A stretch of DNA of 51,683 nucleotides, from contig CALENB010000041.1 of NCBI GenBank assembly GCA_937910235.1, forward strand, positions 1-51,683, written 5' to 3'. This document shows positions 7,512 to 49,854 of this stretch, one piece after another; position 1 is the stretch's first letter; each line of letters starts with the position of its first letter. The notes beneath the pieces are model-generated. The model saw nothing but the letters and a program-made list of their open reading frames with translations, searched no databases and had not been told where the DNA came from. Origin of the DNA: an uncultured Myxococcales bacterium. Its GTDB lineage: Bacteria; Myxococcota_A; UBA9042. The translations under genes and the position numbers were made by a program.

Positions 7512-9293
<1,782 letters not shown>

Positions 9294-13143: not shown

Positions 13144-13216
13144 GGTGAACTCCCTTTTCTCGTCGCGCAGCGTAGCAGACCCCGGCGCGCGCGACTGCCC
13201 CGAATCGGGGTCGCGC

Positions 13217-13519
13217 TCACGCATCCGCGTCGCCGCGGCTGCTTTTGTCACGACTGAGGTGGTCGGCGACCAGGCGCGACCGCAGGCGCCAGCGCGCGCG
13301 TGCGTCTTGTAGCCCATCAAACCGCTCCGGGTCGACACCTTGCCAGTCGTAGGGGCAGTGCAAGCAGGCGTTGCCACAGCAGCGCCCGCGCGCGAGATGG
13401 TGGCGCGCGGTTTGGACGGGAAACCCGGTACGTGGATCGTCGTAGAATCGATCGGATCGACCCAGCGCGTCGCGATGGGCGCGTGCGGCGGCGAGCTCGT
13501 CCGACGAAGGCGCGTCCAC
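13217..13519 (-). CDS. Small Cys-containing protein, DUF5522-like
   Basis: A 100-aa cytoplasmic protein without signal peptide. The central part FYDDPRTGFPVQTARHHLARG followed by RCCGNACLHCPYDW closely resembles the DUF5522 pattern (hydrophobic strand, HLxRGxCCxxxCxHCPY). Four Cys in CCx3CxxC suggest a metal or Fe-S site; function of the family is not known to me. It begins 5 bp after the stop of the preceding minus-strand gene and 73 bp before the start of the repeat lipoprotein, so all probably belong to one transcript. Confidence 0.75.
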   Translation of the reverse strand: MDAPSSDELAAARAHRDALGRSDRFYDDPRTGFPVQTARHHLARGRCCGNACLHCPYDWQGVDPERFDGLQDARARWRLRSRLVADHLSRDKSSRGDADA

Positions 13520-13524
13520 GTCGC

Positions 13525-14478: not shown

Positions 14479-14721
14479 GACAGCTCGGCTCAGATATGCT
14501 TGTGATCGTTACTGATCTGGACCACGGCTACGCGGAACGGAGATCGCGGTCAAGCCGCGGGCCGCAAGTGATCGAAATCATTAGTTGACGGATAACACCG
14601 TGTGCGATCTGATACTTAGCTAGATCTACAACCGATCGAAGGTATTGATGGTTCCGGCCAGAAGCGCCGCCGTGCTACAAGGCGGCACTTCGCAGGCCGA
14701 GACCACGACGAGAGGTGATGC
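14479..14721. promoter_or_regulatory. Divergent promoter region of the two large operons
   Basis: 243 bp between divergent start codons, visibly more AT-rich than the surroundings (14505-14660). A TTGACG at 14585-14590 followed after 19 bp by TGATAC is the best -35/-10-like pair toward the + strand, but the spacing is long. The ribosome site for the + gene is AGAGGTGA just before ATG 14722. No operator is convincing. Confidence 0.35.
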
Positions 14722-29984: not shown

Positions 29985-30995
29985 TCACGCGCCGGGCTCG
30001 GCGACCTCGGCGACATCGTCCGGTGCGACGGGTGCGGGCGCGTCGTAGGTCGGGACCGTTCGTTGCAGCCCCAACGCGCGCAGCAGCCCCATGTCGAGCG
30101 GCGGCAGGTCGTCGATCAAGGCCTGTAGCTGGCGCCGCGCCGCGCCATTCGAGCGCTGGTGACGCCGCGCTAGGATCAGCTCGTTCTTGAGGCTGTGCTC
30201 CCAACCGGCGAGCTCCGTGACGGTGACCTTGTACCCCCACGCCTCCAGCACCAGCGCGCGGATCACGTTGGTGAGGTGGGCGCCGAACTCGCGGCGATGC
30301 CACGCGTGGCGCCACAGCGGATGCGACGCGTGGCCACGGCCCTGGCCTTTCAGCAGATTGAACACCTCGGCCTGGCAGCACGGCACCACGGCGATAAAGG
30401 GCGCGCCGCTCTGCAAGCCGAGGAGGATGGCTTCGTCGGTGGCGGTGTCACACGCGTGCAAGCTGATGACCGCGTCGACTTTGCCCGTCGGCGACCAGCC
30501 CAATGGTTCGGGTGTGTCGTCTCCAATCGGCATCCCCGGCAGCAGCTCGGCGACGCTGGCGCGCGCGAACTTCATCCGTGTGTAGCCGAGGCGTTCGGCG
30601 CGGGACTCGCCGCGCTGCACCAGATCGTTACGGCGGTCGACATTGACGATGTGGCCACGCTCCCGGTTGTGCAGGAACACCTCGTAGAGGATGAACCCGA
30701 GGTAGGCGTTGCCCGCACCCGCGTCGAGCAGCACCGGATCGCGGTCGCCCTCGAACAGCGCCTCGATGTCCTGCCGCAACGTCGCGCAGTAGTGGTTGAT
30801 CTGCTTGAGCTTACGGCGCGCGTCCGCGTTCAGGTCACCGCGCCGCGTGAGCAGATGCAGCTCGCGCAGCAGCTCGGTGCTCTGCCCCTCCATGAGCTCG
30901 TGGTGCACATCTTCCGCGACCACTTTGTCGCGCGCGCGCACGTCACTCGCCGTCAGCTTGTCTTTCGACTTGTCTTTGTTCTTGTTCTTGACCAT
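29985..30995 (-). CDS. SAM-dependent methyltransferase (Methyltransf_32-like)
   Basis: I choose ATG 30995, preceded by GAGGTGAT, giving 336 aa; a longer frame lacks a ribosome site. The start is a charged Lys/Asp repeat ([11 protein letters not shown]). Residues about 70-230 form a Rossmann methyltransferase: [13 protein letters not shown] before the domain, SAM-binding [17 protein letters not shown] (motif I), [21 protein letters not shown], and a [14 protein letters not shown] segment that matches the LHPCGDL motif of the Methyltransf_32/METTL25/TRM13 group, followed by [12 protein letters not shown]. Members of that group act on RNA or are uncharacterised; I infer an RNA or protein substrate without proof. 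It is divergent from the ABC exporter and convergent with murB. Confidence 0.8.
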
Positions 30996-31170
30996 GACAT
31001 CACCTCGCGCGGCGCAGCCTACGCTTGCATGCCGACGCCTGCACCTCACAGCCCGCGTTTATCGGCAAATAGCGCAGATCCCGGCGAGCCGAGTTCGCCA
31101 GCGGTCTCGCCGAGGCCCGCGCCTGCGCTTGGCCGACGGCCCTGCTGCTGCCATCCTGCGTCGTCACGCC

Positions 31171-33018: not shown

Positions 33019-33163
33019 GCTCCGTGCGCGCGTGAAGCCACCGCGCGGCGGCAACACGTACGGTGCGAACCACGCCGCGGCTGTGGTAAACAGCGACGGA
33101 CTCACCTCACGTGAGCTTGCGCCGCGTCCGCCCAAAGACGCAGTCCTTGTTGGAGACACCCAA

Positions 33164-36100
33164 ATGTACCGATTTGCTCGCTTGGCACCGCCCCCCCGAC
33201 TGCGCTCCGCCATCGCGCTGAGCGTCGCGCTCCTGGCCTCGGCCTGCGTCTCCACGCCGCCCACCGGCCTCGCCGAGACCCCGGCTGGCACCGGCGCAAT
33301 GGTGCGCTTTGACACGTTCCACAGACCGCTGCCCGAGATCCCGCTGCCCAACGATTTCGCGACGCGCTACGACGCGACCTCGCCGACGCTGCGGCGCATC
33401 AACGCCAGCCTCGTCGCGCCGACGGTGTGGGAGCAGAAGACCCGCGCCAACCTCGATGAGTTGGATGGCTGGGGCACGCTCGCGCCGATCACGGTGAGCT
33501 TCGACGCGCCGCTCGACGTCGAGAACATCCTCACCCGCCACGGCGATCGCTACGTGCCGGGCAACGACGTGATGCTCGTCATCGACATCACCAAGGGCTC
33601 GGCGGACCGCTGCAAGCCGATGCCCATCGATCTCGGCGCGGACCTGTTCCCGCTCGCCCTCGACCGCGCCGACTACTACCCCGACGACCCCCGCGGCCAC
33701 TTGGGCCAGATGGTGTTCGAGGAGGTCGAGGAAGATCTGAACAAGAACGGCGTGCTCGACCCCGGTGAGGACACCGATATGGACGGCGTGCTGGACCACC
33801 CCAACACCCGCAGCGCGACCGACAAGACGATCCTCAACTTCTACGAACGCGAGACCAACACGCTGATCGCCAAACCGGTCATGCCGCTGCGCCAGGGCAC
33901 GACGTACGCGGTTGTGCTCACGAAGAACCTGCTCGACGAGCAGGGTCAGCCGATTCGGTCGCCCTTCGATTACGTGAACCACACCGGCCAGACCGCGGCG
34001 CTCGAGCCGCTGCCCGAGTGCCTGAAGGCCCTTGATCTCGGGGTTTCAGACGTCGCCTTCGCCTGGACCTTCACGACCCAGGTCTTCACCACACCCTTCG
34101 TCGCTGTGCGCGACGGCTTGTACGGTATGGGCCCGCTGAAGCGCCTCGCCACCGAGTTTCCGGCCACGATGGACCTGATGGATCTACAGGAGGGCAAACA
34201 CGGTCCGTACAAGAAGGTGCTGTCGAACGACGCGTACATGCCGGTGGCCGAGACGCTATTTAGCAGCTTCGGCCCGACCAGCGACAAGGACGAGCTGGCG
34301 GTGTTCTTCGACAACTTCGCCTTCATCGACTTCCACGCGCTCGGCACGATCGACTCGCCGCAGTTTTTCCAGCGCCGTGACGCGGACGGCAAGCTGCTCT
34401 CGCTCAACGACCAGGTCTGGAAGCTCAACGCCCAGACCGGTGAGGCGTACGTGCGGCATGAGGGCGTCAACTTCTGGCTGATGGTGCCGAAGTTCCGCAA
34501 GGGCCCCGCGCCGGTGGCGATCTTTGTGCACGGTCATGGCAGCACCAAGTTCGACGCCATGAACTTCGCCGGATTCCTCGCCCGCCACGGCATCGCGACT
34601 TTGGGTGTCGACGCGGTCAGTCACGGCGTCGACGTCAGCCCGGTCGAGGAGATCCTCGCGCTGGCGATGTTCAAGAAGGGCGCTATCGAAGGTATGGGCA
34701 AGGCCATCCTGGCTGGGCGCGCGCTCGATCAGAACGCCGACGGCCAGGTCGACTCTGGCGTTGATTTTTGGACCTCGTACATCTTTCACACCCGCGACGT
34801 GGTGCGCCAGACGACCGTCGACATCATGCAGGTGGTGCGCACGCTGGCGTCGTTTGATGGCGTGCGAACCTGGAAATACGACGCCAACGGGGATGGCAAG
34901 GACGACCTGGCTGGCGACTTCGACGGCGACGGCAAGGTCGACGTGGGCGGGACGGCGCCGATTCACATGGTCGGCGGCTCGCTGGGCGGCATCATGGCGA
35001 GCATGCTCGCGGGCCTGGAGCCAAAGATCGAGACGGCGGTGTCGATCATCGCGGGCGGCGTGCTCAGCGAGGTCGGTACCCGCAGCTCGCTCGGTGGCGT
35101 GCGCGACGCGATGATCCTGCGGATGATGGGGCCGCTGTTGCTGGTGCGTGATGGGTTTCTGTACCAGGCGTTCCCCGATCTGGTGAACTACAAAGAGGTG
35201 AAGGTTGGACCCATCCCCGCGCTGACACCCGGTAAAATCGCGGTTTTGCAGAACCTGACGAGCGGTGAGCACCGCTGCGCCCGGGTCCAGGCGAACGGCC
35301 ATCTTCGGGTCGCGGTGTCGTCGGATAAGGGGGACAAGCTGCGTCTCTCCGTCTTCGATGAAGAGCTCCCGAGCCGTGAGCGCGAAGGCTGCGAGATGGT
35401 CGGGACGCCGTCCATCGTCATCGACAAGTTCGCCGCCCCGGTGACCCACGCCACCGAGACCCACGTGGCCGGCACGCCGCTGGTGGCGCTCGGCGACGGC
35501 TTCGGTCTGCGCCGGGGTAACCCGGAGTTGCGCCGCATGCTGGGCATCGCGCAGGTGGCGCTGGACGGCGCTGATCCCGCCAACATGGCGCCGTTCATCC
35601 ACCGCGACCGCACGCTCACGTACGGCACGGGCGAGACGGTGGGGTCGCGGATCTTCTACATGAACACCCTCGGCGATCCCGGCGTGCCAACCGCGACCGG
35701 CGTGGCGTTGGCCCGTGCGGCGGGCCTGATCAACTTCCGCGACATCGACCCGCGCTACGGCAAAACGGTGCAGCAGGTGTTGGTGGACACAGGGGTGGTC
35801 CAGGGCGTCGACGGCACGAAGCAACACGTCAACAAGGCCGGCGTAGGCGTGCTGCTCGACGTCGACAACCTCGCCAACTTGGTGCCGAAGGGCGACGGTT
35901 TCGACCAGCCCCGCTTGGATGTGCCGCTGCGCATCATTCGCGACAACGACGCCAAAGTAGGGGGTAAGAGCGCCATTCTGTTTCCGAACATGACGCCACA
36001 CGGCACGCACGGCTTCCCGGTGCCGTCGCCGAAGAAGAGCTTCGACATGGGCTCGCTGCTGACCAATCAGCTGGGTCACTACATGGCGAGTCACGGTGAG

Positions 36101-36175
36101 GCGCTGGATTTCAACCTGTGCCACATCGACTGGTCCTGCGTGTGGATCCCGGCGCTGCTACCGAAGAAGCCCTGA
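33164..36175 (+). CDS. Large VolA-like lipase lipoprotein with Ca-binding loops
   Basis: I choose ATG 33164 (GGAG at 33152-33155), giving 1003 aa with signal peptide and lipobox (LASAC). The N-terminal domain has IPLPNDFATRYDATSP, NLDELDGWGTLAPITVSFDAP and MPLRQGTTYAVVLTKNL, the layout of the bacterial virulence-factor lipase N-terminal domain; FAWTFTTQVFTTPF follows. The hydrolase domain has VAIFVHGHGSTKFDA (oxyanion) and the nucleophile elbow MVGGSLGGIMAS with Ser606. Three EF-hand or dockerin-like Asp-rich loops are embedded: DLNKNGVLDPGED from residue 191, DQNADGQVDSG from 522 and DANGDGKDD...DFDGDGKVD from 573, the last directly before the nucleophile elbow. Probably a surface esterase whose activity depends on Ca; substrate unknown. 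It is a paralogue in layout of the 14722-17013 protein. Confidence 0.82.
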   Translation: MYRFARLAPPPRLRSAIALSVALLASACVSTPPTGLAETPAGTGAMVRFDTFHRPLPEIPLPNDFATRYDATSPTLRRINASLVAPTVWEQKTRANLDELDGWGTLAPITVSFDAPLDVENILTRHGDRYVPGNDVMLVIDITKGSADRCKPMPIDLGADLFPLALDRADYYPDDPRGHLGQMVFEEVEEDLNKNGVLDPGEDTDMDGVLDHPNTRSATDKTILNFYERETNTLIAKPVMPLRQGTTYAVVLTKNLLDEQGQPIRSPFDYVNHTGQTAALEPLPECLKALDLGVSDVAFAWTFTTQVFTTPFVAVRDGLYGMGPLKRLATEFPATMDLMDLQEGKHGPYKKVLSNDAYMPVAETLFSSFGPTSDKDELAVFFDNFAFIDFHALGTIDSPQFFQRRDADGKLLSLNDQVWKLNAQTGEAYVRHEGVNFWLMVPKFRKGPAPVAIFVHGHGSTKFDAMNFAGFLARHGIATLGVDAVSHGVDVSPVEEILALAMFKKGAIEGMGKAILAGRALDQNADGQVDSGVDFWTSYIFHTRDVVRQTTVDIMQVVRTLASFDGVRTWKYDANGDGKDDLAGDFDGDGKVDVGGTAPIHMVGGSLGGIMASMLAGLEPKIETAVSIIAGGVLSEVGTRSSLGGVRDAMILRMMGPLLLVRDGFLYQAFPDLVNYKEVKVGPIPALTPGKIAVLQNLTSGEHRCARVQANGHLRVAVSSDKGDKLRLSVFDEELPSREREGCEMVGTPSIVIDKFAAPVTHATETHVAGTPLVALGDGFGLRRGNPELRRMLGIAQVALDGADPANMAPFIHRDRTLTYGTGETVGSRIFYMNTLGDPGVPTATGVALARAAGLINFRDIDPRYGKTVQQVLVDTGVVQGVDGTKQHVNKAGVGVLLDVDNLANLVPKGDGFDQPRLDVPLRIIRDNDAKVGGKSAILFPNMTPHGTHGFPVPSPKKSFDMGSLLTNQLGHYMASHGEALDFNLCHIDWSCVWIPALLPKKP

Positions 36176-37321: not shown

Positions 37322-40300
37322 ATGCGTACTCCAATCATGACCGCGCTTGCGCTCGCCGTCCTGCTCATCGGCGCAGCGTGCAGCGAAGATCCCGATGGCG
37401 GCGCCGATGGCGCCACAGCCCCCGGGACCAAGGACGCCAGCGCAAACGACCAAGTCACGGGTCTGGGTGACGGCGCGACGAGCGGCTGCCAAGGCGCGGC
37501 GGACGGGACGCCCTGCGACGACGGGCTGCCGTGCAGCGCCAATGATCACTGCAAAGCGGGCGTCTGCAAGGCGGGCGACAACGTCTGCGCCTGCTCAGCG
37601 GACGCCAACTGCGCCCTCTACGAAGACAACGATCTGTGCAATGGCACGCTCTACTGTGACCTCAAGGTGTTTCCGTATCGCTGCGTGCTCAACCCCGCCA
37701 CCGCCGTCACGTGCAAAGGCGCCACGGGGCCCTGCACCACCGAGCGGTGCGAGCCGACCACGGGCAAGTGCACAAGCGTAGCGGTGACCGACGGCACCGT
37801 CTGCCTCGACGACAGCCCGTGCACCGTCGACAGCAGCTGTCAGAGCGGCGCATGTGTGGGCGGGCAGGCGTCGTGGTGCGCCTGCGAGGCCGATGCGGAC
37901 TGCAATCAGGGTGGCGACGACACAAACCTGTGTGATGGCAGCTTGTACTGCGATAAATCGGCGTTTCCGCACACCTGCAAAGTGGTCGCATCGACGGTGG
38001 TGCTCTGCGCGACCGGCTCGGACTCGGCCTGCACCAAGAACGCATGCCAGCCCGCGACTGGTCAATGTGCGGCCGCTGCGGTGGAGACCTTGGCGCATGT
38101 CTGTGATGCGGCCGGGGTCTGTCGGTGGCGAACGCCCGCCAAGGGCACACCGCCCACCAGCGTCAGCTGTGACGATGGCAACGCCTGCAGCCAGAACGAG
38201 ACGTGCGCGGCCGGGCAATGTGTCGGCGGACTCGACGTGTGTATTTGCGCCAAAGACGCGGACTGCGACGCGCAGGAGGACGGCGACCTGTGTAACGGCA
38301 CGCTGTACTGCGACGTGGCGACGGGGGGCTGCAAAGTGAACCCCAAGACGCCGGTGACGTGCGCGTCGGCGGCGGACACGACCTGCACCCAGAACACCTG
38401 CAACCCGCTGACGGGCACCTGCGCGTTGACGCCGGTGAAACCAGGCAAGGTGTGCGACGACGGCGACCCCTGCACGACCGGTGAGATCTGCAAGGGCGGC
38501 GTCTGCACGGCGGGCGTCGTCCTGTGCCAGTGCAAGACGGACGTGGACTGTGTCGCCAAAGACGACGGCGATCTGTGCAACGGCACGCTGTTCTGCAACA
38601 CGGCGACCGGCAAGTGCCTGCCGAACCCGGCGTCGGCCGTGACGTGTCCGAGCGTGGGAGACACCGACTGCCTCAAGAATACGTGCGTCCCGCAGACCGG
38701 AAAATGCAGCTTTGAGACCGTAAAATCAGGCGAGAAGTGCGACGACGGCGACGCCTGCACCGTCGGCGACTGGTGCCTGAGCGGTGCGTGCAAGAGCGGC
38801 GCGAACACCTGCGAGTGCCAGCAACACGCGGACTGCGCCGGCAAGGATGATGGCGATCTCTGCAACGGCGTCTGGTTCTGCGATACCAGCGGCAAGGCGC
38901 CTGCCTGCAAACCCAACCCCGGCTCCATCGTCTGGTGCGCCAAAGACAACGACGGCGCGTGCGTGAAGAACCTGTGTGATAGCAAGACCGGAAAATGTGG
39001 CTTGCAGCCAGCGATCGACGGCGCCAGCTGTCCGGCCACGGGGCCGTGTGTGAGCAAGGCTGTGTGCGCCGCGGGGAGTTGCACGGTCGCGGTCAAGTCC
39101 GATTGCGATGACGCCAACCCCTGCACGGTGGACAAATGCGACGCCAAGCTAGGGTGTCAGCACAACAACGTGCCTTGTGAGGACGGCAACGCCTGCACGC
39201 TCGACACCTGCGACGCCAAGACGGGCAAGTGCGCCTCCAACGCGGCTCCGATGCAGGGCAAGAGCTGCGACGCCGATGGCGACGGCTGCACCGTCAATGA
39301 CTTCTGCAAGGCGGGCAAATGCGTCGGCGGCGGCCAGGTGCTGTGTCCGAAAGCGACCAACCCCTGCGCGCAGGCTCAGTGTGTCTCGGTCACCGCGCAG
39401 AGCCATACGTGCGTGGTGGTGCCGAGCCAAGAGGGCAGCGCCTGTGCCGGCGATCATCCGTGCCTGCTGGGGTCGACCTGCAAGGCGGGCAGCTGTGTGC
39501 CAGGGCAGACGGAGAAGCTGTTTCGCCACACACGCGCGCTGACTGGGCAGCTCGTGTCCTATGCGGACGTGACGGCGCACCCGAACGGCGGCTACGTGGC
39601 CGTCGGCAGCGTGCGGGCGGCGAGCGGCGCGGGGGGCGCGAGCTGGCTGGTAGACCGATTTGACGCGGCTGGCGCGCTGATGGCCGGCCAAGGTGCGAGC
39701 GGCAAACCGCTGCTGGTGACCTCTCCAGTCGCCGACGTGGGCGCTGGCGCGGTTGGCGTGCACGCGACGGCCGATGGCGTCGTCGTGCTGGGCACCGTTC
39801 GGACCACCAAAGACGGCCGGCAGGTGCGGATGCTGGCGCTCGCGGCCGACACGCAGACGGTCGTTTGGGATCGGGTGCACGGCGGCGGCCAAGACGAGGT
39901 CGCCCTTGCGCTGGCGCCGCTCGACGGCGGCGGCTGGCTAGCGGCGGGACAGATTGGCAGCGCGGCGGCGAGCGACGGCCTCGCGCTGCGCTTGTCAGCG
40001 ACCGGGCTGCTGCTCGCGACCTGGACACAGCCAGAGACTGGCGCCCAAGCGCTGCTGGACGGCGTCGGCACGTCGGATGGCGGCGCGCTCCTCGTCGGCT
40101 GGCGCACGCCGCCGAGCGGCAAGCAGCAGGCCTGGGTGCTGCGCCTCGATGGCGGCTGGAAGACGGTGTGGAGCCACCCCATCGGCGACGCGGCGGCGCA
40201 AGCGCTGACGACGGTGCAGCGCGTCGGCACGACGACGATCGCGGCGGGTTGGCAAGGCGCGCCGGTGCCGCACGCGTGGTGGCTCGATCTCGACGCGCTC

Positions 40301-42151
40301 GGCAAGATCCGCTCGCAGCACACCACGACCCTACCCTCCGCGGCGTTGTCGATCGCGCCGCTAGGTGGCGGCAGCTTCGCGCTGGGCGGGCGCATGGTCG
40401 CCGCCGTCAGCAGCGGCTGGATGGCCGGCGTCGACGGCAGCGGCCACCTGTTTTGGCAGCGAGAGATGAGCGAAGGCGGCGACGAGCAGGTCACGCGCCT
40501 TGCCGCGACGGTGAACGGCGGCCTCGTCACCGTCGGCGCTGTCGGCACCACCGGCAAATCGAGCGGAGTGCTCGCGCGCACCGACGCGTGGGGGCGGGCC
40601 ACCTGCGCGGCGTCGGGCGCTTGCGCGGCAAAAAACCTGCCGGCGTGTGGCGACGGCAACGTCTGCACCGACGACCTGTGCGACGCCAAGCAAGGCTGCG
40701 CGCCCGCGCACAACGCGATTGGCTGCGACGACGGCGACGCTTGCACCACCGCCGACGCATGCCAGAGCGGAAGCTGCTTAGGCGGCGGAAAAACAGCCTG
40801 CGACGACGCCAACACCTGCACCACGGACGCCTGCGACACCAAGAAGGGCTGCGTGCACAGCCCAGCGATCGGCGCCACGTGCGCCGACGGCAGCGTCTGC
40901 ACCAGTGACGAGAAGTGCGTCACTGGGGTGTGCCAAATGACCGTCAAAAACTGCGACGACGGCGAGGTCTGCACGGTCGACGCGTGCGACGCGATCAAAG
41001 GCTGTCTGCACCAAGCCAAGGCAGACGAGACCCCGTGTGGCAGCGGCAAGGTCTGCCTGTTGGGGACGTGCAGCAAGCGGTGGGCGACGGCGATCGTGGC
41101 TGGCGACGGCATCACGATCGCGATCAGCCCGAGCGGGGAGGTCCGCTCTTGGGGCTACGCCGCCTACGGCACGCTGGGGCGCTCCGGCGTCGCTCACCTC
41201 CCGGGCTTGGTACCGAACCTGCCGCCGAGCGTCCGCGTCTCGTCCGGCGGCTTGCTCAGCTGTGCGGGCACGGTAGCTGGCCAAGTGTACTGCTGGGGCG
41301 CGGGTCCGCACGGGATCGGCTGCAGTGTTCCGTACCAGACGGCGCCCGTCCCTATCGTCAACTTCACGGACACCGCGATCGGACTGACGACGGGCGTCGG
41401 CTCGCGCGTCTGCGCGGCCGCAAAATCGGGCCTGACGCGCTGTTGGGGCGACAACGCCTGGGGCGGCTGCGGCATCGGCGTCGCAGGCGCTCCGGTGTGC
41501 ACGCCCGGCAAGGCGGTGCTCGATCTAAGCGACACGGTGCAGATCAGCGCGGGAGACAAACACACCTGCGCCCGGGCGGCCGGCGGAAAGGTGCGCTGTT
41601 GGGGGACCAGCCCATCGGGCGAGCTCGGCGATGGCGGTGCATTCGGCTATGCCAACAAGACAAGCACGCCCCGCGACGTCAAGGGCCTCGTCGACGCGAT
41701 CGATCTCAGCGCGTCGGGCAATCACGCCTGTGCTGTGCGCGCCGGTGGCACCGTCGTGTGTTGGGGAAACAATGAGTCGGGCCAGCTCGGCGATGGCAGC
41801 CTCACCAACCGCAACGCGCCGACGCCAGCCTTCGGACTCAGCGACGCGATCGCCGTTGATGCTGGCGGCGATCATACGTGCGCGCTGCGAAAGACCGGCC
41901 AGGTCGTGTGTTGGGGCAACAACAGCTACGGGCAGCTCGGGACGGGGACGACATACAAGTCGATCGCGCCACTTCCAGTTCCAGCGCTGGACGCGGTCGT
42001 CGCCATCAGCGCCGGAAAGCACCACACGTGCGCAGTGCGCAAGAACGGCGAGGTCCGCTGCTGGGGCCTCAATGGTTATGGCGAACTTGGCAGCGGAAAG
42101 ACAGGCGGTCAATCCCTGTCACCAGTCACGGTGGTCGGCTCCAAGCCCTGA
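37322..42151 (+). CDS. Giant modular lipoprotein: Cys-rich repeats, WG propeller, RCC1 propeller
   Basis: 1609 aa from ATG 37322 with signal peptide and lipobox (IGAAC). Domain order: Asp/Ala linker (20-55); Cys-rich region (about 55-725) with five copies of a roughly 95-residue unit containing DGDLCNGTLYCD and CDDGDxCTxxxxC; a beta-propeller (727-1095) of WG/delta-60-like repeats such as AVGVHATADGVVVLGT; a second Cys-rich region (1100-1250) of short CDDGxxCTxDxCDxxxGC units; and seven RCC1-type repeats (1252-1609), each holding a VxCWGNNxxGQLGDG core, which should close a seven-bladed propeller. RCC1 propellers often bind proteins or chromatin in eukaryotes; in bacteria they are mostly secreted with unknown roles. 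Anchored outside the cell by inference. It is transcribed alone or with the helicase-like gene 29 bp downstream. Confidence 0.9.
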   Translation: MRTPIMTALALAVLLIGAACSEDPDGGADGATAPGTKDASANDQVTGLGDGATSGCQGAADGTPCDDGLPCSANDHCKAGVCKAGDNVCACSADANCALYEDNDLCNGTLYCDLKVFPYRCVLNPATAVTCKGATGPCTTERCEPTTGKCTSVAVTDGTVCLDDSPCTVDSSCQSGACVGGQASWCACEADADCNQGGDDTNLCDGSLYCDKSAFPHTCKVVASTVVLCATGSDSACTKNACQPATGQCAAAAVETLAHVCDAAGVCRWRTPAKGTPPTSVSCDDGNACSQNETCAAGQCVGGLDVCICAKDADCDAQEDGDLCNGTLYCDVATGGCKVNPKTPVTCASAADTTCTQNTCNPLTGTCALTPVKPGKVCDDGDPCTTGEICKGGVCTAGVVLCQCKTDVDCVAKDDGDLCNGTLFCNTATGKCLPNPASAVTCPSVGDTDCLKNTCVPQTGKCSFETVKSGEKCDDGDACTVGDWCLSGACKSGANTCECQQHADCAGKDDGDLCNGVWFCDTSGKAPACKPNPGSIVWCAKDNDGACVKNLCDSKTGKCGLQPAIDGASCPATGPCVSKAVCAAGSCTVAVKSDCDDANPCTVDKCDAKLGCQHNNVPCEDGNACTLDTCDAKTGKCASNAAPMQGKSCDADGDGCTVNDFCKAGKCVGGGQVLCPKATNPCAQAQCVSVTAQSHTCVVVPSQEGSACAGDHPCLLGSTCKAGSCVPGQTEKLFRHTRALTGQLVSYADVTAHPNGGYVAVGSVRAASGAGGASWLVDRFDAAGALMAGQGASGKPLLVTSPVADVGAGAVGVHATADGVVVLGTVRTTKDGRQVRMLALAADTQTVVWDRVHGGGQDEVALALAPLDGGGWLAAGQIGSAAASDGLALRLSATGLLLATWTQPETGAQALLDGVGTSDGGALLVGWRTPPSGKQQAWVLRLDGGWKTVWSHPIGDAAAQALTTVQRVGTTTIAAGWQGAPVPHAWWLDLDALGKIRSQHTTTLPSAALSIAPLGGGSFALGGRMVAAVSSGWMAGVDGSGHLFWQREMSEGGDEQVTRLAATVNGGLVTVGAVGTTGKSSGVLARTDAWGRATCAASGACAAKNLPACGDGNVCTDDLCDAKQGCAPAHNAIGCDDGDACTTADACQSGSCLGGGKTACDDANTCTTDACDTKKGCVHSPAIGATCADGSVCTSDEKCVTGVCQMTVKNCDDGEVCTVDACDAIKGCLHQAKADETPCGSGKVCLLGTCSKRWATAIVAGDGITIAISPSGEVRSWGYAAYGTLGRSGVAHLPGLVPNLPPSVRVSSGGLLSCAGTVAGQVYCWGAGPHGIGCSVPYQTAPVPIVNFTDTAIGLTTGVGSRVCAAAKSGLTRCWGDNAWGGCGIGVAGAPVCTPGKAVLDLSDTVQISAGDKHTCARAAGGKVRCWGTSPSGELGDGGAFGYANKTSTPRDVKGLVDAIDLSASGNHACAVRAGGTVVCWGNNESGQLGDGSLTNRNAPTPAFGLSDAIAVDAGGDHTCALRKTGQVVCWGNNSYGQLGTGTTYKSIAPLPVPALDAVVAISAGKHHTCAVRKNGEVRCWGLNGYGELGSGKTGGQSLSPVTVVGSKP
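37490..39060 (+). repeat. Five divergent ~285-bp units of the Cys-rich region
   Basis: The motif D-L-C-N-G-T-L-Y-C-D (or a close variant) begins at 37631, 37925, 38285, 38570 and 38855, so the last three units are spaced by exactly 285 bp (95 codons) while the first intervals are 294 and 360 bp. Each unit also holds a CxCxxDxDC and a CxxxTGxC segment. Copies have diverged at the DNA level, so this is an old duplication. Confidence 0.85.
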
Positions 42152-42180
42152 ACTCGCGTCGGTTGCGGTAGGCTGCAGCG

Positions 42181-44085
42181 ATGACAGACCCCACGAGCGA
42201 CGCCGGCGCGGCGCATCCCAACCTGGCTCGCGACGTCGGCCCCGCGTGCGTGGGTGCCCAAGCCTACGTCTGGCGCGATGAGCGCCTCGCTGGCATCGAC
42301 GTATCGACGCTGGTCGCCTCGCGCCAGACGGCGCTTGACGCCACCGCACACGCCGCCGAAGACCGACTCACGGCGCCGTCGTTGCGGCGTGACGGGCAAC
42401 AGCTCGCTCAGCGTGCGCTGCTGCTCGCCCTCGGCGAGAGCGACCGTCTCATTCCGTGGCACGAGCGCGCCTTGGATGCTCGCGCATGGCACGCGGCGAC
42501 GGCGCTGTTGCTGGATGGCGCGGCGCTGCGGCCGCACAAAGCCGGGCTCGCAGCGGAGTGCCTGGCCGCCGGCGCCCAGCTGTTGGCTGACCTCCACGCT
42601 GACCCACGAACACGAGACGACGCCGCATATGACGACCTCTGGGTCGCGGCGGCAGCGGCGCATGCGGCCAATGACGTGGCGCTGTGGGCGCGGCTTAGGG
42701 CGGCGCTGCGCGCCGCGCCGCCTCCGGCGTCCGAGATTGCGGGCACGATGCTGCAGGCGTGGCCGCGGCTGCTGGCGTGTCCGACCGGCGACGCGCTGCT
42801 GTCGACGGCGCCGGCGCCGGCGCCCCCCGCGTGGTGCGACGCCGAGTTGCTGGCCAAGAGCGACCTCCGCCTCACCGGTCCATTCGCCGCGGCGTGGGCG
42901 GCTACGTTGGCGCGCCGCCACCGGGACACCGTCCTGCTACCAAGCGTCGCGATGACCGGCGAGGGCGCCGGGCTAGACGCCGGGCTAGACGCCGGGCTAG
43001 ACGCCGGGCTAGACGGCGAGTTGGCCGCCGAGCTGCGTCAAGAACAGCGGCGCGCGCGTCATACGCACAGCGTGGACGTCGACTCCGACCACGGCGCCGT
43101 CCCCGTTGGCGGGACGCTGGTGTGGACGGGAAACCGGATGCGTGTGGGGCTGCTCGACCCGCTTGAGACGTTCTTGCCGAGCTTCGTGGTCCGTATGAAC
43201 GGCGCCGCAGGTGGGTTTCCGGCGGGACGCAACGAGGCGATGGCGGCGGCGGCGTGGCGATTGGCGACACGCGGCCAGGTCGTGCTGGTGTGTGGCGCGT
43301 CGCGTGCGCTGGTGGAGGCGGCTGACGCCCTGTTGCGGTTGGCCCAGACAAACCCGCTGCCCGCCGCAGAGCGCTGGTTGACGCGCCGTGACACGCCCGC
43401 CAACACGTCGCCCGAGGCCGCGAATTCAGCGCCGGAGCGCCGTGGCCCGGGACGTCGGCGGCGTCTGGACCCAACGCGGGTGCAGGACTTGGCGGTCGCG
43501 GGCGTGATGGTGTGGTCCCCGGACTTGGAGCGCATGACGCCAGGCCTCAGGCAGCGCGCGGCGGACGGACCGCGGCTCCTGCTCACGACGACGGCGTTAC
43601 CGCTGGTCGCCTGGCCGGCAGCGACGGCGCTGATCCTGACGGCACCGGAGGCCGATGGCCTCGCGGTGTCGCAGTCGTGGCTGCACGCGGCTGGGCGCAC
43701 GCTCGCGCCGTGGCCTCAACCGTTGGTGTGCATCGGCGTCGACGGCCGCAAAGGAAGGCAGCGCGTAGTGCGTGAGGTGGAGCTCGCGGAGTCGCTGCTG
43801 ATGGCACCCGCGCCGCCAGCCAGCCCGTTGGTGCGCCTGCTCACCGCCGCGCTGCCCGACGAACGGCCGAGCACGCTGCCCGACCAGCTCGCGCGCGGCG
43901 ACCTCAGCGTCTTGGGCGCCGACGCCGAGTGGGTCGCTTCACTGCTCGGCCAGGCGACCGCCATCGGTCCGATCGACCCGCATCGCACCGCGGCTTGGCG
44001 CAGCACCAGCGACCCGTGCGTGCGGGCGCTGCTGCTGCGCGCTTGGCCGGCGCTGCTGGTCCAGCCTGCGCCGCCGGCGTCGTGA
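42181..44085 (+). CDS. Unknown protein with degenerate helicase domain-2-like segment
   Basis: 634 aa, no signal peptide, Ala-rich. The N-terminal 270 residues look all-helical. From about residue 300 a second part can be read as the RecA-like domain 2 of an SF2 helicase. LATRGQVVLVCGASRALVEAADALLRL (361-387) fits the motif IV strand-helix, and PRLLLTTTALPLVAWPAATALIL (about 464-486) fits motif V (TTTALxxGVxxP). SQSWLHAAGRT (about 497-507) fits motif VI without its arginine finger pair. No Walker A or DEAD/H box and no RecA-like domain 1 is present, so ATPase activity is not expected. The likeness is from memory and needs a profile search; otherwise the protein is unknown. A 12-bp repeat lies in the middle. 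It starts 29 bp after the giant lipoprotein and ends 45 bp before phaC; no clear ribosome site. Confidence 0.7.
   Translation: MTDPTSDAGAAHPNLARDVGPACVGAQAYVWRDERLAGIDVSTLVASRQTALDATAHAAEDRLTAPSLRRDGQQLAQRALLLALGESDRLIPWHERALDARAWHAATALLLDGAALRPHKAGLAAECLAAGAQLLADLHADPRTRDDAAYDDLWVAAAAAHAANDVALWARLRAALRAAPPPASEIAGTMLQAWPRLLACPTGDALLSTAPAPAPPAWCDAELLAKSDLRLTGPFAAAWAATLARRHRDTVLLPSVAMTGEGAGLDAGLDAGLDAGLDGELAAELRQEQRRARHTHSVDVDSDHGAVPVGGTLVWTGNRMRVGLLDPLETFLPSFVVRMNGAAGGFPAGRNEAMAAAAWRLATRGQVVLVCGASRALVEAADALLRLAQTNPLPAAERWLTRRDTPANTSPEAANSAPERRGPGRRRRLDPTRVQDLAVAGVMVWSPDLERMTPGLRQRAADGPRLLLTTTALPLVAWPAATALILTAPEADGLAVSQSWLHAAGRTLAPWPQPLVCIGVDGRKGRQRVVREVELAESLLMAPAPPASPLVRLLTAALPDERPSTLPDQLARGDLSVLGADAEWVASLLGQATAIGPIDPHRTAAWRSTSDPCVRALLLRAWPALLVQPAPPAS
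42970..43017 (+). repeat. Four 12-bp tandem units coding Gly-Leu-Asp-Ala/Gly
   Basis: Four consecutive units of GGGCTAGACGCC (the last ending GGC) in frame within the helicase-like gene, coding G-L-D-A three times and G-L-D-G. They sit in the linker between the helical N-terminal part and the helicase-like part, and include the CTAG tetranucleotide, which is otherwise uncommon in the window. Confidence 0.9.
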
Positions 44086-44130
44086 CGCGGCCTGCGTTGC
44101 TGGGATCGCCAACCGCGCTACACTGCTGCC

Positions 44131-45363
44131 ATGAACGATGCACACGAGCCGCGCGACACAGCCGAAACCCAGACGAAGCGCGGTCGGTCCGGGGCCGACG
44201 GGACCCGGCCACCGCGGCCGCCCCGCGCGGCCACGGGCGGTCGCGGCGCCGGTCGGACGTTGGGACGCGCGCGCCGCAGCTTGAATCGACGCGCCGCGCG
44301 CGCCGCCAAGGGCTTCGTCAACGGGTTGGACTGGTTCTTGCGGGATCCCGAAGACGTCGTTGGACCGACGTCGTGGCACCCGGCGCTGCAGCGCGACAAG
44401 TTGACCGTGCGGCGCTACGAACGCCCCGACGCCGCGCCACGAGCCCACAGATCCGGGCCAATGGCGACCCGGGTGCCTGTGCTGCTCATCCCGCCGCTGA
44501 TGGTCAAGCCCTACATCTTCGACCTGACCGAAGAGCGCTCCTTTGTGCGCCACCTGCTCGCCGCGGGGTTTGACACGTACCTGGTCGACTTCGGTGAGCC
44601 CGACGAAGACGACTCGCGCGTCAGCCTCGACGACTACGTGTTGGACTGGATGCCGGCCGCCGTCGACGCCGTGTGCGCCGCCGCCGACACCGAGCGCATC
44701 TTCCTCACTGGGTACTGCATGGGCGGACTCTTCGCCTTGATGCACACCGCCGCCAACGACGACACGCGGGTCGCCGGCATCATCACGATCGGCTCGCCCA
44801 TCGACAGTCACAAGATGGGGGTGCTCAGCGTCCTGAGCCGCGGGCTACATCGCGAGGTGGATTTTCTCGCCAGCCACATCGGCAACGTCCCCGGCGAGTT
44901 GAGCTCGCAGATGTTCAAGCTGATGAGCCCGATGAAGCAGGTGACGCGCTACGCAGATCTGTTCATGAACCTGTACGACGAGGAATACGTGAAAGGCTTC
45001 GACGCGCTCAGCGCCTGGACCGGTAACTTCATCGACTACCCGCAGGACGCCTTCCGCCAGCTGTTTCGCGACTTCATGCGGGACAACAAGCTCAAAGATG
45101 GTCGTTTCGTTGTCGGCGCAAGGCGGCCGGAGGGGCCCATCGTCGCGGACCTCGCCAAGATCACCGTGCCGGTCCTCGCGTTCGCCGGTGCGACGGACAA
45201 CGTGGTGCGCGAAGCGGCCGTGCGGGAGATCTGCGCGGCGGTGGGCACGGCCGACGTCACGGTGCGTGTCGCGCCGGGCGGCCACATGGGCGTCTTCGCT
45301 GGCCGCCATGCACCAGCGTCGGTGTGGCAACCGACGGCAGACTGGATGACCGACCACGCCTGA
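44131..45363 (+). CDS. phaC: Polyhydroxyalkanoate synthase, class III PhaC-like
   Basis: Polymerises (R)-3-hydroxyacyl-CoA to storage polyester. The 410-aa protein has the class III PhaC core: PVLLIPPLMVKPYIFDL, RSFVRHLLAAGFDTYLVDFG, the lipase-like box GYCMGG with the nucleophile Cys196, HIGNVPGELSSQMFKLMSP, DYPQDAFRQLFRDFMRDNKL, the Asp of FAGATDNVV and the His of APGGHMGVF. Class III PhaC is normally about 360 aa and works with PhaE; here an extra basic, Arg/Ala/Pro-rich N-terminus of about 60 residues precedes the core and no phaE, phaA or phaB lies in the window. Related alpha/beta-hydrolases of uncertain role cannot be fully excluded. ATG lacks an obvious ribosome site. The next gene begins 104 bp downstream. 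Confidence 0.82.
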   Translation: MNDAHEPRDTAETQTKRGRSGADGTRPPRPPRAATGGRGAGRTLGRARRSLNRRAARAAKGFVNGLDWFLRDPEDVVGPTSWHPALQRDKLTVRRYERPDAAPRAHRSGPMATRVPVLLIPPLMVKPYIFDLTEERSFVRHLLAAGFDTYLVDFGEPDEDDSRVSLDDYVLDWMPAAVDAVCAAADTERIFLTGYCMGGLFALMHTAANDDTRVAGIITIGSPIDSHKMGVLSVLSRGLHREVDFLASHIGNVPGELSSQMFKLMSPMKQVTRYADLFMNLYDEEYVKGFDALSAWTGNFIDYPQDAFRQLFRDFMRDNKLKDGRFVVGARRPEGPIVADLAKITVPVLAFAGATDNVVREAAVREICAAVGTADVTVRVAPGGHMGVFAGRHAPASVWQPTADWMTDHA

Positions 45364-46472: not shown

Positions 46473-48515
46473 TCAGGTGCGCAGCGTGACCCTGCGCCCG
46501 CGGGCCCGCCACCACGCGCTCCAATGGCGCTTCAGGCTGCGTTTGTCCGTCTGACGCAGCCAGGGCCGATGGCCGGTCAACCGCGTCAGCACCTTCGCGG
46601 CGTTGCGAGCCACGGGGTCCTTGGGCGACGTCAGCGCGCGAATCAGCCGCGGCACATCGCGCCGCACAAAGCGCTGGCCGCGGGCGAGCCGTACCCCGTG
46701 GCTGCGAAATCCGGCCTTCATCCAGAGTAACCAGCCTTGGGCCTGACTCTGCGTCCAGAACTGCTGCCACGCCGCGATGGTGCGCTGACGCTGTTTCGCG
46801 TTGCGGCTCAACAGGTGGCGCGAGCGGATCGATTGATTTGTCAGGGCTACGAGGGCCTTGTGTGCCGCCAGCCGCAGCTCGGGCGTGGGCGCGCTCAGCG
46901 CCGCGATGAGCGCAGGCACATCGCCCGGGCGACCGCTCTCGGCGAGCAGCTGCATCGAACGGAGCGCGATGGCGGCTCGGGCAGACTTGGGCAGATCCTT
47001 GTGGAGCCCGGGACCGGGATGGCGTAGCAGCTGCACCGCGACGTCCGCCATCCCCTCTGGCGCCAACCCCACCCAGGCCTCAAACAGCGCGACCGCCCAC
47101 GTGCCGCGGCGGGTGCGGCGCACGGCCTCCAGCACGCCGGGTCCAGCGTCCTTCAGCCGCAGCGCGACGATGTTGCGCAACGCGGCCTCCCGAACCCGGC
47201 CGTCGGCGTCGGCGAGACGCGCCAACAGCGCGTCACCAGCGCCGCGCGCTTCGATGCGACCGAGCAGCTCGACCGCTTGCAAGCGCAGCTTCGCGTCGGA
47301 CACCGTGGACGCCTCGGCTACGCGCGCGACGTGGGCGGCGAACGCATCGTCGAAGCGATCGACCCAGGCGCGCTGTGGCCCGCGATCCAGGCAGCCGTGT
47401 TTGCGGTCTTGCAGCGAACAGAACAGCCGCACGTGAAAATGATCGTCATGCGGCGCCGAGTCGCCAGGCTGGCGCAGCAACTTGGCCAACCGCAGGCGGG
47501 TGGGCTCGGCGACGCCGCGTTTCTCCGCGGCGTTGAGCATCCGTCGCTTCAGCCAGCGGGCCACAAAGACCCACTGCACCGGCGTCTCCTCCTGGGCCAG
47601 CATCGCCAGCGCGACGTCGAGGTTGCGTTCGTCGTCAAACACCAACTCGCCGTCTCGACTGTAGCCGGTGCGACGAAACTTGCGGAAGTCGTCCATCTTC
47701 ACTGGCTGTCCAGCGCGATCGCGGGCGTAGAAGCAGATGTCGACGTCGCGGCCGGCCTGATGGCTGTGATGCCAAGGCGAGCGACCGCCGCCATGCAGGC
47801 TGATGTTGCCGATCCGCATCTCGGCGCCTTTGTGGCGGCGGGCCACGGCGGTTGAGACGCGCGAGATGAAGCGCTGCATCTCATCGGTGCCCCACACGGT
47901 GTCTCGCTCGGCGATGTGCGGAAAGAAGCGGTAGTGAGGCCCTTGTGGCTTGATTTTACGGGCTGAGAGCAGGCGGCCCCTGCTGGTGACCCCGAGGCTC
48001 ACGCTGCCCTTCGGCCGGCGCAGCAGCCGCCGCGCGGCGCTCACAGACAGCGGCCCAGCGGCGGGAACCCAGCCGCCTTGCACCCGGATCGCCTCGTGCC
48101 GCAGTTGTTTCGCGGCTTTGGAGAGGGTCTCGACGCTGAAGCCTGCCAGCGCGCTCTCCTCGACCCCTCCGTCGTCAATCCCCCCAGCGTCGTGCCCTTC
48201 AGCGTCAGCAGCGATCGCGGCCGACGTCTTGCAGGGCTTGGCCACGACGGGCTTGACTGCGACGGGCTTGGCCACGACGGGCTTGACTGCGCCGGGGTTG
48301 ACTGCGCCGGGCTTGGTGCTGGCCGGCTTGCCTGCGCCGGGCTTAGTGCTGGCCGCCGAGGTAGCCGTTGTCGACGCCGGCTGGGTCGCGTTTGTCGGCC
48401 GTGGGGTGAGCGCTACGGCCACCACGCCAAGGGCAATCGCCCAGACCATCGCGCGGTTGGTCGCGGCGGTCGGTGCCAGTGTGAGGCGGAGGCGGGGCAT
48501 GGTGCGGGTGTTCAT
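46473..48515 (-). CDS. Penicillin-insensitive murein endopeptidase (MepA-like) fused to HEAT repeats
   Basis: 680 aa from ATG 48515 (a GTG at 48569 is possible but gives no better signal peptide). After a signal peptide (MVWAIALGVVAVALT...NA) and a Lys-Pro-rich repeat linker, residues about 150-385 form a MepA/M74 LAS metallopeptidase that cuts D-Ala-mDAP cross-links in peptidoglycan. The metal and catalytic residues are all present: His252 and Asp259 in HSHQAGRDVD, and His356, His359 and His361 in HDDHFHVRL, equivalent to His113, Asp120, His206, His209 and His211 of E. coli MepA. Residues about 395-680 are HEAT-like helical repeats (LQAVELLGRIEARGAGDALLA, VREAALRNIVALRLKDAG and more). The HEAT part is not in ordinary MepA and may dock the enzyme to a partner. 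It is the last gene of a minus-strand run. Confidence 0.9.
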   Translation of the reverse strand: MNTRTMPRLRLTLAPTAATNRAMVWAIALGVVAVALTPRPTNATQPASTTATSAASTKPGAGKPASTKPGAVNPGAVKPVVAKPVAVKPVVAKPCKTSAAIAADAEGHDAGGIDDGGVEESALAGFSVETLSKAAKQLRHEAIRVQGGWVPAAGPLSVSAARRLLRRPKGSVSLGVTSRGRLLSARKIKPQGPHYRFFPHIAERDTVWGTDEMQRFISRVSTAVARRHKGAEMRIGNISLHGGGRSPWHHSHQAGRDVDICFYARDRAGQPVKMDDFRKFRRTGYSRDGELVFDDERNLDVALAMLAQEETPVQWVFVARWLKRRMLNAAEKRGVAEPTRLRLAKLLRQPGDSAPHDDHFHVRLFCSLQDRKHGCLDRGPQRAWVDRFDDAFAAHVARVAEASTVSDAKLRLQAVELLGRIEARGAGDALLARLADADGRVREAALRNIVALRLKDAGPGVLEAVRRTRRGTWAVALFEAWVGLAPEGMADVAVQLLRHPGPGLHKDLPKSARAAIALRSMQLLAESGRPGDVPALIAALSAPTPELRLAAHKALVALTNQSIRSRHLLSRNAKQRQRTIAAWQQFWTQSQAQGWLLWMKAGFRSHGVRLARGQRFVRRDVPRLIRALTSPKDPVARNAAKVLTRLTGHRPWLRQTDKRSLKRHWSAWWRARGRRVTLRT
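48234..48350 (-). repeat. Pentapeptide-coding 15-bp imperfect repeats in the endopeptidase linker
   Basis: Seven to eight 15-bp units code the Lys-Pro linker (units A-V-K-P-V, V-A-K-P-V, S-T-K-P-G and variants). A 30-bp supra-unit (GACGGGCTTGACTGC with GACGGGCTTGGCCAC) is repeated almost exactly. Confidence 0.85.
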
Positions 48516-48549
48516 CACGGAGAGAACATACCGGATCTCGCTGCGACCG

Positions 48550-49854
48550 CTAGGAAAAATGGGGTTCACCCGGCTTCGCGACGCCGAGACCGAACGCTGG
48601 GTCGACGACGTCGCGCTGCAGGACTGTAATCGCGTCGCCGCGCAGCGTCGCGTCTGTCAGCCCACGGTCGACCGCACCGAGCCACGCCTGCGCATGTTCC
48701 GCGCCGACGGGACGCGCGGCGACGATGAGGCACGCGCTCACGCTAAACTCGGTGCCGTCCCCAGCGAGGAAGATCTCAGCCCGCAGCTCTTCGCGCAGCC
48801 CCACCGCGACGGACCGTGCGTCTTGCACGGCCATGTTCGGCAGCAAGAAGGCGAACTTGTCGCCAGTCAGGCGCGCGGTGAGGGCCGTGTCGCCCAGCCG
48901 ATCCTCCAGCAGACCGGCCAACCAGAGCAGCACCTCGTCGCCAGCGTCGCGACCGTGCGCGCCATTGATGGCTTTCAGGCCGTCGATGTCACAGACGCCC
49001 AGCACGTCCTCGCAGGTGCCGCACTCGCCGAGACGGGCTTCGACGGCGTCGACGAAGGCGGCGCGACCGAGCAGCCCGGTCAGGCTGTCGTGCCGATCGG
49101 CCCAGGCCACCCGCTGCGCGGAGACCTTCTCGACGGTGATGTCTTCCTGCGAACCCACCAACACGAAGTGGTCGGACGCGACTTTGGTCAGCTCCAGGCG
49201 CAGACCAGCCCACAGCCAGCTTCCGTCCCGATGCTGCAGGCGATAGTCGAGCTCAGCCACCGGTCCGGCGCCGTCTAAGACGCCCCGCAGTCGCTGCCGC
49301 AGCGCCGTCTGATCAGCCGGATGAACCCGCGAGAACCAAGCCGTCGTGTCGTCGCCGTGCTCGTCGTCCGCGTACCCGAGCATGGCTTTCCAGCCAGGAT
49401 CGAAGGTCATGCTGTGGTCGGTCAGATCCCATCGCATGGTCCCCGCGCCCGCGCTGTGCACGGCGGCGCGATAGCGTCGGCGGATCTCCGCGAACCGTTG
49501 CTCCATCTGGGCACGGTAGGCGCCGAGCCGCAACGACCTAGCGATCGCGCGTGCAGGCTCCTCCGGCGCCAGGACGTCGTGCGCCCCATCGAGCAAGGTC
49601 GCCTTCAGGTCGGGGCCATCGTCGTCGGCTAGAACGACGCGCGTCGCGAAGGGGTAGCTGGCGCGCAGGCGGGCCAGCGTGCCGCGCCACCCGGCGGCGC
49701 CTACCACGATGACCTCTGGTGGCGCTTGGTCGACGGCGATCTCAGCGCAAACGTCGAGCACCAGACCGCACGCCAGCACACGCGTCAGCGCGGCCGGGTG
49801 GTCGCCTGGGGCGACGGCGAGTAGAACGCGGATGGACTCGGACAGGTCGTGCAT
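48550..49854 (-). CDS. Receiver-like/PAS/GGDEF protein with degenerate active site
   Basis: I take ATG 49854, giving 434 aa. Residues 1-115 have the layout of a response-regulator receiver but without the usual phospho-acceptor Asp (PEVIVVGAAGW). Residues about 125-245 are a PAS domain (AGTMRWDLTDHSMTF, WFSRVHPADQ, DYRLQHRDGSWLW). Residues about 265-420 are a GGDEF domain: DSLTGLLGRAAF and CDIDGLKAINGAHG are recognisable, but the signature reads TGDKF (330-334) instead of GGDEF, with Lys333 where the catalytic Glu should be, and no RxxD inhibitory site. It is therefore probably not an active diguanylate cyclase and may be a c-di-GMP/GTP or partner-binding sensor. It lies between the heme/copper lipoprotein (17 bp) and the endopeptidase gene (34 bp). 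Confidence 0.85.
   Translation of the reverse strand: MHDLSESIRVLLAVAPGDHPAALTRVLACGLVLDVCAEIAVDQAPPEVIVVGAAGWRGTLARLRASYPFATRVVLADDDGPDLKATLLDGAHDVLAPEEPARAIARSLRLGAYRAQMEQRFAEIRRRYRAAVHSAGAGTMRWDLTDHSMTFDPGWKAMLGYADDEHGDDTTAWFSRVHPADQTALRQRLRGVLDGAGPVAELDYRLQHRDGSWLWAGLRLELTKVASDHFVLVGSQEDITVEKVSAQRVAWADRHDSLTGLLGRAAFVDAVEARLGECGTCEDVLGVCDIDGLKAINGAHGRDAGDEVLLWLAGLLEDRLGDTALTARLTGDKFAFLLPNMAVQDARSVAVGLREELRAEIFLAGDGTEFSVSACLIVAARPVGAEHAQAWLGAVDRGLTDATLRGDAITVLQRDVVDPAFGLGVAKPGEPHFS

What the first reader, a model, noticed from the sequence alone, without database searches (positions are those of the whole stretch)
42181..44085. Helicase domain-2 remnant without Walker A or DEAD box
The second half looks like RecA-like domain 2 of an SF2 helicase (motifs IV, V and VI recognisable, arginine finger not intact), while the first half is all-helical and carries no nucleotide-binding motif. 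It could be a domesticated, catalytically dead helicase module used for binding, sitting between a giant lipoprotein and a PHA synthase gene.
Basis: inference. Interest (0 to 1): 0.55.

Follow-up and report, generated by a model that had tools for sequence, protein, structure and literature searches.

The report
Motorless relic of a phage-defence helicase
A few related bacteria carry a fast-changing protein that appears to descend from HamB, the DNA-sensing motor of the Hachiman anti-phage system, but has lost the part of the motor that burns ATP, so it can probably only bind partners.

Summary
The 634-aa ORF at 42181-44085 has a helical first half and one RecA-like domain 2, no Walker A, no DEAD/DExH box and a broken motif VI. 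PADLOC HamB matches at 1.7e-8. Profile-profile comparison finds HamB RecA2 (score 53.5; best of 100 shuffles 20.6) and, more weakly, HamB's N-terminal helical domain NAH, which holds the HamA nuclease (25.7; best 17.4). RecA1 and the HamB C-terminus are not recognisable. I accept relatives in 3 other genomes, two of the same genus, one of another genus of the family. In one, nine residues join NAH to RecA2, so RecA1 is gone there. HamA was not found in these genomes while controls rang. The gene sits among conserved genes under weak purifying selection. I call it a domesticated HamB-derived pseudohelicase, probably a binding protein; its partner is unknown. The phaC link is not constant.

The parts
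42181..44085 (+). HamB-derived protein without RecA1 (634 aa)
   Evidence: ORF; PADLOC HamB 1.7e-8; profile-profile match
42325..42714 (+). N-terminal helical domain, residues 49-178, probable HamB NAH
   Evidence: hhalign score 25.7 against HamB 1-300; 0 of 100 column shuffles and 0 of 150 block shuffles reach it; model helices 41-178
42451..42486 (+). family block IPWHxxxLDARA (residues 91-102), IPWH and LDARA invariant in 4 of 4 sequences
   Evidence: alignment A1
42715..43098 (+). low-confidence linker (residues 179-306) in the place of RecA1
   Evidence: pLDDT block means 28-43 for 181-300; no similarity to HamB RecA1 (14 of 100 shuffles score as high)
42966..43015 (+). 12-bp tandem repeat, 4.2 copies, coding GLDA repeats inside the linker
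43099..43815 (+). RecA-like domain 2 (residues 307-545)
   Evidence: VIA Z 13.5-17.6 to domain 2 of Hel308 and Pol theta; hhalign 53.5 to HamB RecA2, 0 of 100 shuffles
43111..43188 (+). GTLxWTGxRxR...DxxxTxxP hairpin (residues 311-336), start of RecA2, equivalent of the HamB sheet that touches NAH
   Evidence: PADLOC stretch 311-391; HamB HMM alignment; HamB chain 503-530
43585..43626 (+). motif V place, TTTALPLVAWPAAT (residues 469-482); the glycine of HamB (SPTLAQGLNLSA) is lost
   Evidence: hhalign alignment and HamB sequence
43684..43704 (+). motif VI place, HAAGRTL (residues 502-508); arginines not conserved
   Evidence: alignment A1
43816..44082 (+). C-terminal helical tail (residues 546-634), no match to the HamB C-terminus
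   Evidence: model helices; 87 of 100 shuffles score as high; 46% identical to G001
44131..45363 (+). class III PhaC-like gene downstream (neighbour)
   Evidence: TIGR01836 1.7e-62, but 211 bits, under its 365-bit cut-off
29985..31049 (-). Methyltransf_32 gene, divergent neighbour of the relative in G001 and G003; here 11 kb away
   Evidence: Pfam; gene order

Best explanation
A domesticated pseudohelicase derived from HamB of Hachiman. Shown by comparison: RecA2 of HamB kept, NAH probably kept, RecA1 with the ATP site not recognisable (absent in G014), HamA not found, and the gene in the same neighbourhood in the three genomes of the genus that have it. Inferred: without an ATP site it cannot move on DNA; the NAH-RecA2 pair, which in HamB moves to control the nuclease, now serves as a docking platform for another protein (or DNA), probably a host partner, since the blocks conserved in this family (IPWH...LDARA, WTG...) are its own.
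For: PADLOC HamB1 1.7e-8 and 3.2e-5, the only models under 0.01 for the window protein; 2 of 4 members match. hhalign against 14 HamB or HamB-type proteins: RecA2 score 56.2, E 8.6e-6, and a colinear second hit to NAH, 30.4; the 8 close HamB alone 50.6, the 6 divergent ones alone 33.1; reversed HamB at most 17.3, PriA 16.1, six other helicase clusters at most 27.1. Segment tests with shuffles. Fold search: HamB 8vxa is Foldseek rank 1 (3.1e-5); VIA aligns model 48-544 to HamB 1-736 (Z 17.4, rmsd 17.2, 357 residues); the separately folded G001 relative gives HamB as its three best VIA rows (Z 12.8-15.2, rmsd about 20). G014 has 9 residues between the last NAH invariant and RecA2. HamA (PF08878) not found in G000, G001, G002, G003, G014, found in G193 and two HamB plasmids by the same search. 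Codon positions 1 and 2 diverge at 0.68 and 0.56 of random, position 3 at 0.90. NAH binds HamA and touches RecA2: PMC12278908, sections 8 and 16 and passages read.
Against: The binding role is inferred only. No Pfam, NCBIfam or PHROG match worth the name. Four sequences only, two cut by contig ends. Low-confidence models; Foldseek alone gave nothing under E 0.5 for the G001 model, HamB at E 2.0. The HamB HMM found P0001 (5e-7) and G001 (0.005) but G014 only at 0.17 and G003 not at all, in a search of four sequences. tblastn of the protein against plasmids: no match. G002 of the same genus, 67% complete, has no match. The gene evolves faster than its neighbours (42% identity to G001, against 71% PhaC and 79% isomerase; the MurB-like gene is also low, 57%), which also fits decay. 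The Arg-rich stretch near 393-432 is 20% identical to G001 and missing in the held part of G003, so a conserved DNA-binding loop is not supported.
Confidence: 0.6

Rival explanations
1. Decaying relic: a HamB gene that lost HamA and RecA1 and now drifts towards loss, with no function.
For: Fast divergence, repeat-expanded linker, clear match in only 4 of 22 family genomes (a fifth match at E 0.11 has stops).
Against: Open frame and alignable blocks in four genomes; codon position 2 at 0.50-0.59 of random divergence in three pairs, and the C-terminal tail as conserved as RecA2.
Confidence: 0.2
2. Decoy or antidote: free NAH captures HamA nuclease brought in by plasmids or prophages with Hachiman and keeps it inactive.
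For: NAH is the HamA-binding domain of HamB (PMC12278908); no HamA found in these genomes; 58 of 131 matching plasmid records hold at least 80% of the HamB query.
Against: The NAH sequence is strongly diverged; no interaction test; no mobile genes seen next to it.
Confidence: 0.07
3. PHA-related accessory protein, co-transcribed with the PhaC-like gene.
For: Same strand, 45 bp before the PhaC-like gene here and 71 bp in G001, with start codons of my choice.
Against: In G003 phaC has another upstream ORF; 0 of 12 further phaC stretches of the family hold the gene.
Confidence: 0.08
4. Not HamB: domain 1 of another helicase, such as a degenerate PriA, with GRxxA for the Walker A.
For: By eye, GRNEAMAAAAWRLATRGQVVLV resembles a Walker A helix (my reading); a weak second hhalign hit aligns it to the Walker A of HamB (score 20-21.5).
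Against: PriA profile score 16.1, the level of reversed decoys; PriA over the curated cut-off in 22 of 22 family genomes, some in pieces; fold and PADLOC agree on RecA2.
Confidence: 0.04

Closest known systems
HamB, helicase of the Hachiman anti-phage system (E. coli ECOR31, 8vx9/8vxa; PMC12278908)
   Same: RecA2 with W-hairpin and AAAWRL block; probable NAH at the N-terminus; same order
   Different: About half the length; RecA1 with Walker A and DEGH not there; motifs V and VI broken; WH*, CAH and OB not recognisable; no HamA found; chromosomal neighbourhood of conserved genes
Hel308 / Pol theta helicase (Ski2-like SF2)
   Same: Fold of residues 302-545 matches their domain 2
   Different: They have both RecA domains; NAH is absent from related Ski2 helicases (PMC12278908)
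Deinococcus radiodurans PriA, a pseudohelicase (PMC4504706, abstract read)
   Same: A helicase that lost ATPase and unwinding and keeps binding to DNA and a partner
   Different: Other family, with a known role; the abstract reports broken motifs, not a lost domain
Utp25 pseudohelicase (PMC9539457, abstract and figure legend read)
   Same: Dispensable helicase motifs in a retained fold
   Different: Yeast DEAD-box-like protein with both domains

Membership tests
HamB (Hachiman) | RecA2 domain of HamB type | tested here: met
   PADLOC 1.7e-8; hhalign 53.5, 0 of 100 shuffles
HamB (Hachiman) | N-terminal NAH helical domain | tested here: met
   hhalign 25.7, 0 of 100 and 0 of 150 shuffles, other controls at most 19.3; E 0.005, so weaker than RecA2
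HamB (Hachiman) | RecA1 with Walker A and DEGH | tested here: not met
   No GK[ST] or DE[ACGHV][DHQ]; segment score 11.7, 14 of 100 shuffles reach it; 9-residue join in G014
HamB (Hachiman) | WH*, CAH and OB after RecA2 | tested here: inconclusive
   Tail of 89 aa only; segment score 9.0, 87 of 100 shuffles reach it; VIA of the G001 model extends to HamB 869, but at rmsd 20.6
HamB (Hachiman) | HamA nuclease gene next to it | tested here: not met
   PF08878 not found in 5 of 5 genomes of the group, found in 3 of 3 controls; a divergent HamA could be missed
SF2 helicase (active) | Two RecA domains with motifs I, II and VI | tested here: not met
PriA | PriA profile | tested here: not met
   No NCBIfam match, hhalign 16.1
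Pseudohelicase (works like) | Retained binding without ATPase | not testable with these tools
   Needs biochemistry

The most novel reading that the evidence does not exclude
A phage-defence sensor was turned into a motorless cellular regulator: the NAH-RecA2 unit of HamB, cut free of its ATPase domain and of its nuclease, now controls another effector or neutralises incoming HamA.
Probability: 0.3. Interest if true: 0.7.

Novelty: new variant of a known kind. Interest (0 to 1): 0.47.

Why it matters
It would be a case of an immune helicase taken over by the host after losing its motor, and a natural experiment on what the NAH-RecA2 contact of HamB can do without ATP. It also warns that HamB descendants can hide in proteins without a Pfam or NCBIfam match. 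The group is small and the function unknown, so the weight is moderate.

Tried and rejected
Two scripts that tried to build a PriA alignment were faulty (wrong frames, then no sequence selected); nothing is concluded from them; one search replaced them (17 PriA sequences).

The scan of genome contigs with the single protein found nothing; with the alignment it gave the same three relatives. Helicases of the phylum that PADLOC HamB scores at 173-190 bits (L094, L095, L125-L128) do not align well to the protein (two of them tested by BLAST and HMM; cluster score 27.1, still the best non-HamB control). L124 is a HamB N-terminal part with HamA next to it on its contig.

Matches dropped after reading: L005 in G053, whose locus carries other genes; L146 in G272, a 665-aa ORF without the other family blocks; L147 in G186, antisense to an aldehyde-dehydrogenase-like ORF (name recalled); a match in G019 at E 0.11 with two stops. 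Undropped, the counts are 5 of 89, 5 of 22 at E 1 and 6 of 377; I use 4 each time.

The first HamA search had no positive control; it was repeated with controls. RecA1 remnants in the linker were looked for by eye and by profile and not supported. A DNA-binding Arg-rich loop was considered and not supported by conservation. No sigma-70-like promoter was found in 41900-44300. Literature: four searches listed no paper that I recognised as about a HamB without RecA1; I saw listings, two outlines with abstracts and two sections plus passages of PMC12278908.

Full report
WHAT IS THERE. The ORF at 42181-44085 (+) codes 634 aa. Pfam, NCBIfam and PHROGs give nothing over a cut-off (best: DUF1173 at 0.041), and sequence search of the PDB nothing under 0.05. 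It has no GK[ST] and no DE[ACGHV][DHQ]. An AlphaFold2 model from four sequences (pLDDT 57.6, pTM 0.38) is helical from 41 to about 293 and then alternates strands and helices from 309 to 541.

RELATIVES. The protein occurs once in its own genome. Among 89 relatives the protein search matched 5 genomes, one of them dropped; in 52 genomes of the class the alignment matched 4; in 377 of the phylum 6, two of them dropped. The members are G000 (window), G001 and G003 of the same genus and G014 of another genus of the family. G002, of the same genus and 67% complete, has no match. G001 is full length (627 aa, 42% identical); G003 and G014 stop at contig ends. A scan of genome contigs with the alignment returned the same three others, one titled 'Myxococcales bacterium'.

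IDENTITY. PADLOC's HamB models match residues 311-391 and 311-393 at 1.7e-8 and 3.2e-5; 2 of 4 members match HamB. Foldseek against the PDB ranks HamB (8vxa) first at 3.1e-5, TM-score 0.25 by query. VIA places residues 302-545 on domain 2 of Pol theta and Hel308 (Z 13.5-17.6) and 48-544 on HamB 1-736 (Z 17.4, rmsd 17.2, as expected of two bodies). The G001 relative, folded separately (pLDDT 54.5), gave no Foldseek match under 0.5 but HamB entries as the three best VIA rows, Z 15.2, 15.1 and 12.8, the next row 9.4.

I fetched 14 HamB or HamB-type helicases from plasmids; 9 of the 14 have a gene annotated HamA or DUF1837 directly upstream. The profile of the family against all 14 scores 56.2 (E 8.6e-6) on RecA2 and 30.4 on NAH in the same order; the 8 close ones alone 50.6, the 6 divergent ones alone 33.1; reversed HamB at most 17.3, PriA 16.1, six clusters of other helicases at most 27.1, this last being a cluster that itself scores on PADLOC HamB. 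Segment by segment with 100 column shuffles: NAH 25.7 (best shuffle 17.4), RecA2 53.5 (20.6), RecA1 11.7 (14 of 100 reach it), C-terminus 9.0 (87 of 100). Shuffles in blocks of seven columns, which keep helix periodicity: 0 of 150 reach the NAH score, and other controls reach at most 19.3. HMM of nine HamB sequences against the four members: P0001 5e-7, G001 0.005, G014 0.17, G003 none.

ANATOMY. HamB of E. coli reads FGEVIWSAPAGRLNLSVGYEAAWVSRFI at 503-530, and a plasmid HamB GVLRWTGSAARLEVVVEEENPFVPRFV...NELTLAAAWRFVEQKKDVLIFCP; the window protein reads GTLVWTGNRMRVGLLDPLETFLPSFV...NEAMAAAAWRLATRGQVVLVCG. Residues 521 and 525 of HamB contact NAH according to PMC12278908 (passage; the paper names Tyr525 and Trp521, the chain has Y521 and W525). 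The motif V place is TTTALPLVAWPAAT against SPTLAQGLNLSA; the motif VI place HAAGRTL here, QAAAATL in G001. In G014 nine residues lie between the last NAH invariant (L168 of the window) and the RecA2 start (G311), where the window has 142. So RecA1 is absent in G014 and not recognisable in the others, and the window's linker with its 12-bp repeat is probably filler.

SURROUNDINGS. Gene order RecQ, MurB-like, methyltransferase (-), this gene, PhaC-like, peptidyl-prolyl isomerase, M74 peptidase (-) is shared with G001. In the window about 11 kb lie between methyltransferase and the gene, with an ABC transporter, two ORFs without Pfam match and the RCC1 ORF; G001 lacks these, and G003 keeps the end of RecQ, MurB-like, methyltransferase and the gene up to a contig end, so I take the 11 kb for an insertion. 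Between the start codons I chose, methyltransferase and gene are 86 bp apart in G001 and 59 bp in G003. PhaC follows at 45 bp in the window and 71 bp in G001; in G003 phaC has another upstream ORF, and 0 of 12 further phaC stretches of the family hold the gene, two of them with little upstream sequence. So the gene belongs to a conserved block, and its tie to phaC is not constant.

SELECTION. Between window and G001 the codon positions differ at 0.463, 0.410 and 0.597, or 0.68, 0.56 and 0.90 of the random expectation; two other pairs behave alike. Neighbours are more conserved: PhaC 71% and isomerase 79% identity, though the MurB-like gene is at 57%. The protein is under selection, but weak or fast changing.

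FUNCTION. In Hachiman, HamB holds the nuclease HamA by NAH; DNA loading and ATP move RecA2 and NAH and activate HamA (PMC12278908). HamA was not found in five genomes of this group, while the same search found it in G193 and two plasmids. With neither motor nor nuclease this protein cannot do what HamB does. The most likely role is a binding platform made of NAH and RecA2, kept for a host partner (confidence 0.6 for the whole statement, about 0.9 for descent from HamB). Decay, a HamA decoy and a PHA role are the rivals.

NOVELTY. Pseudohelicases are known (PMC4504706, PMC9539457, abstracts). I saw no report of a HamB without RecA1 in four searches, which cover only the open papers of that library and were read as listings.

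Noticed in passing
window 37322-42148: Giant ORF with Dictyostelium-type CTDC cysteine repeats and RCC1 repeats (5-6 stretches), lipoprotein by its signal (my reading); it lies in the 11-kb stretch between methyltransferase and the HamB relic.
   Followed up: partly
window 44131-45363: PhaC-like protein with a GYCMGG box scores 211 bits on class III PhaC, under the 365-bit cut-off; close homologues at 48-75% in 14 other family genomes.
   Followed up: partly
window 46473-48569 (-): M74 murein endopeptidase fused to HEAT repeats.
   Followed up: no
window 33032-36175: 1047-aa ORF without Pfam match in the 11-kb stretch.
   Followed up: no
L054 (G014), 7671-16505 (-): Stop-free stretch of 2945 codons, similar to the window's cysteine-repeat ORF, on the contig that carries the G014 relic.
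   Followed up: no
L130, L141, L142, L143, L144 (plasmids): HamB or HamB-type helicases with a gene not called HamA in HamA's place: SAVED domain protein, aminotransferase, or hypothetical protein; possible divergent partners.
   Followed up: no
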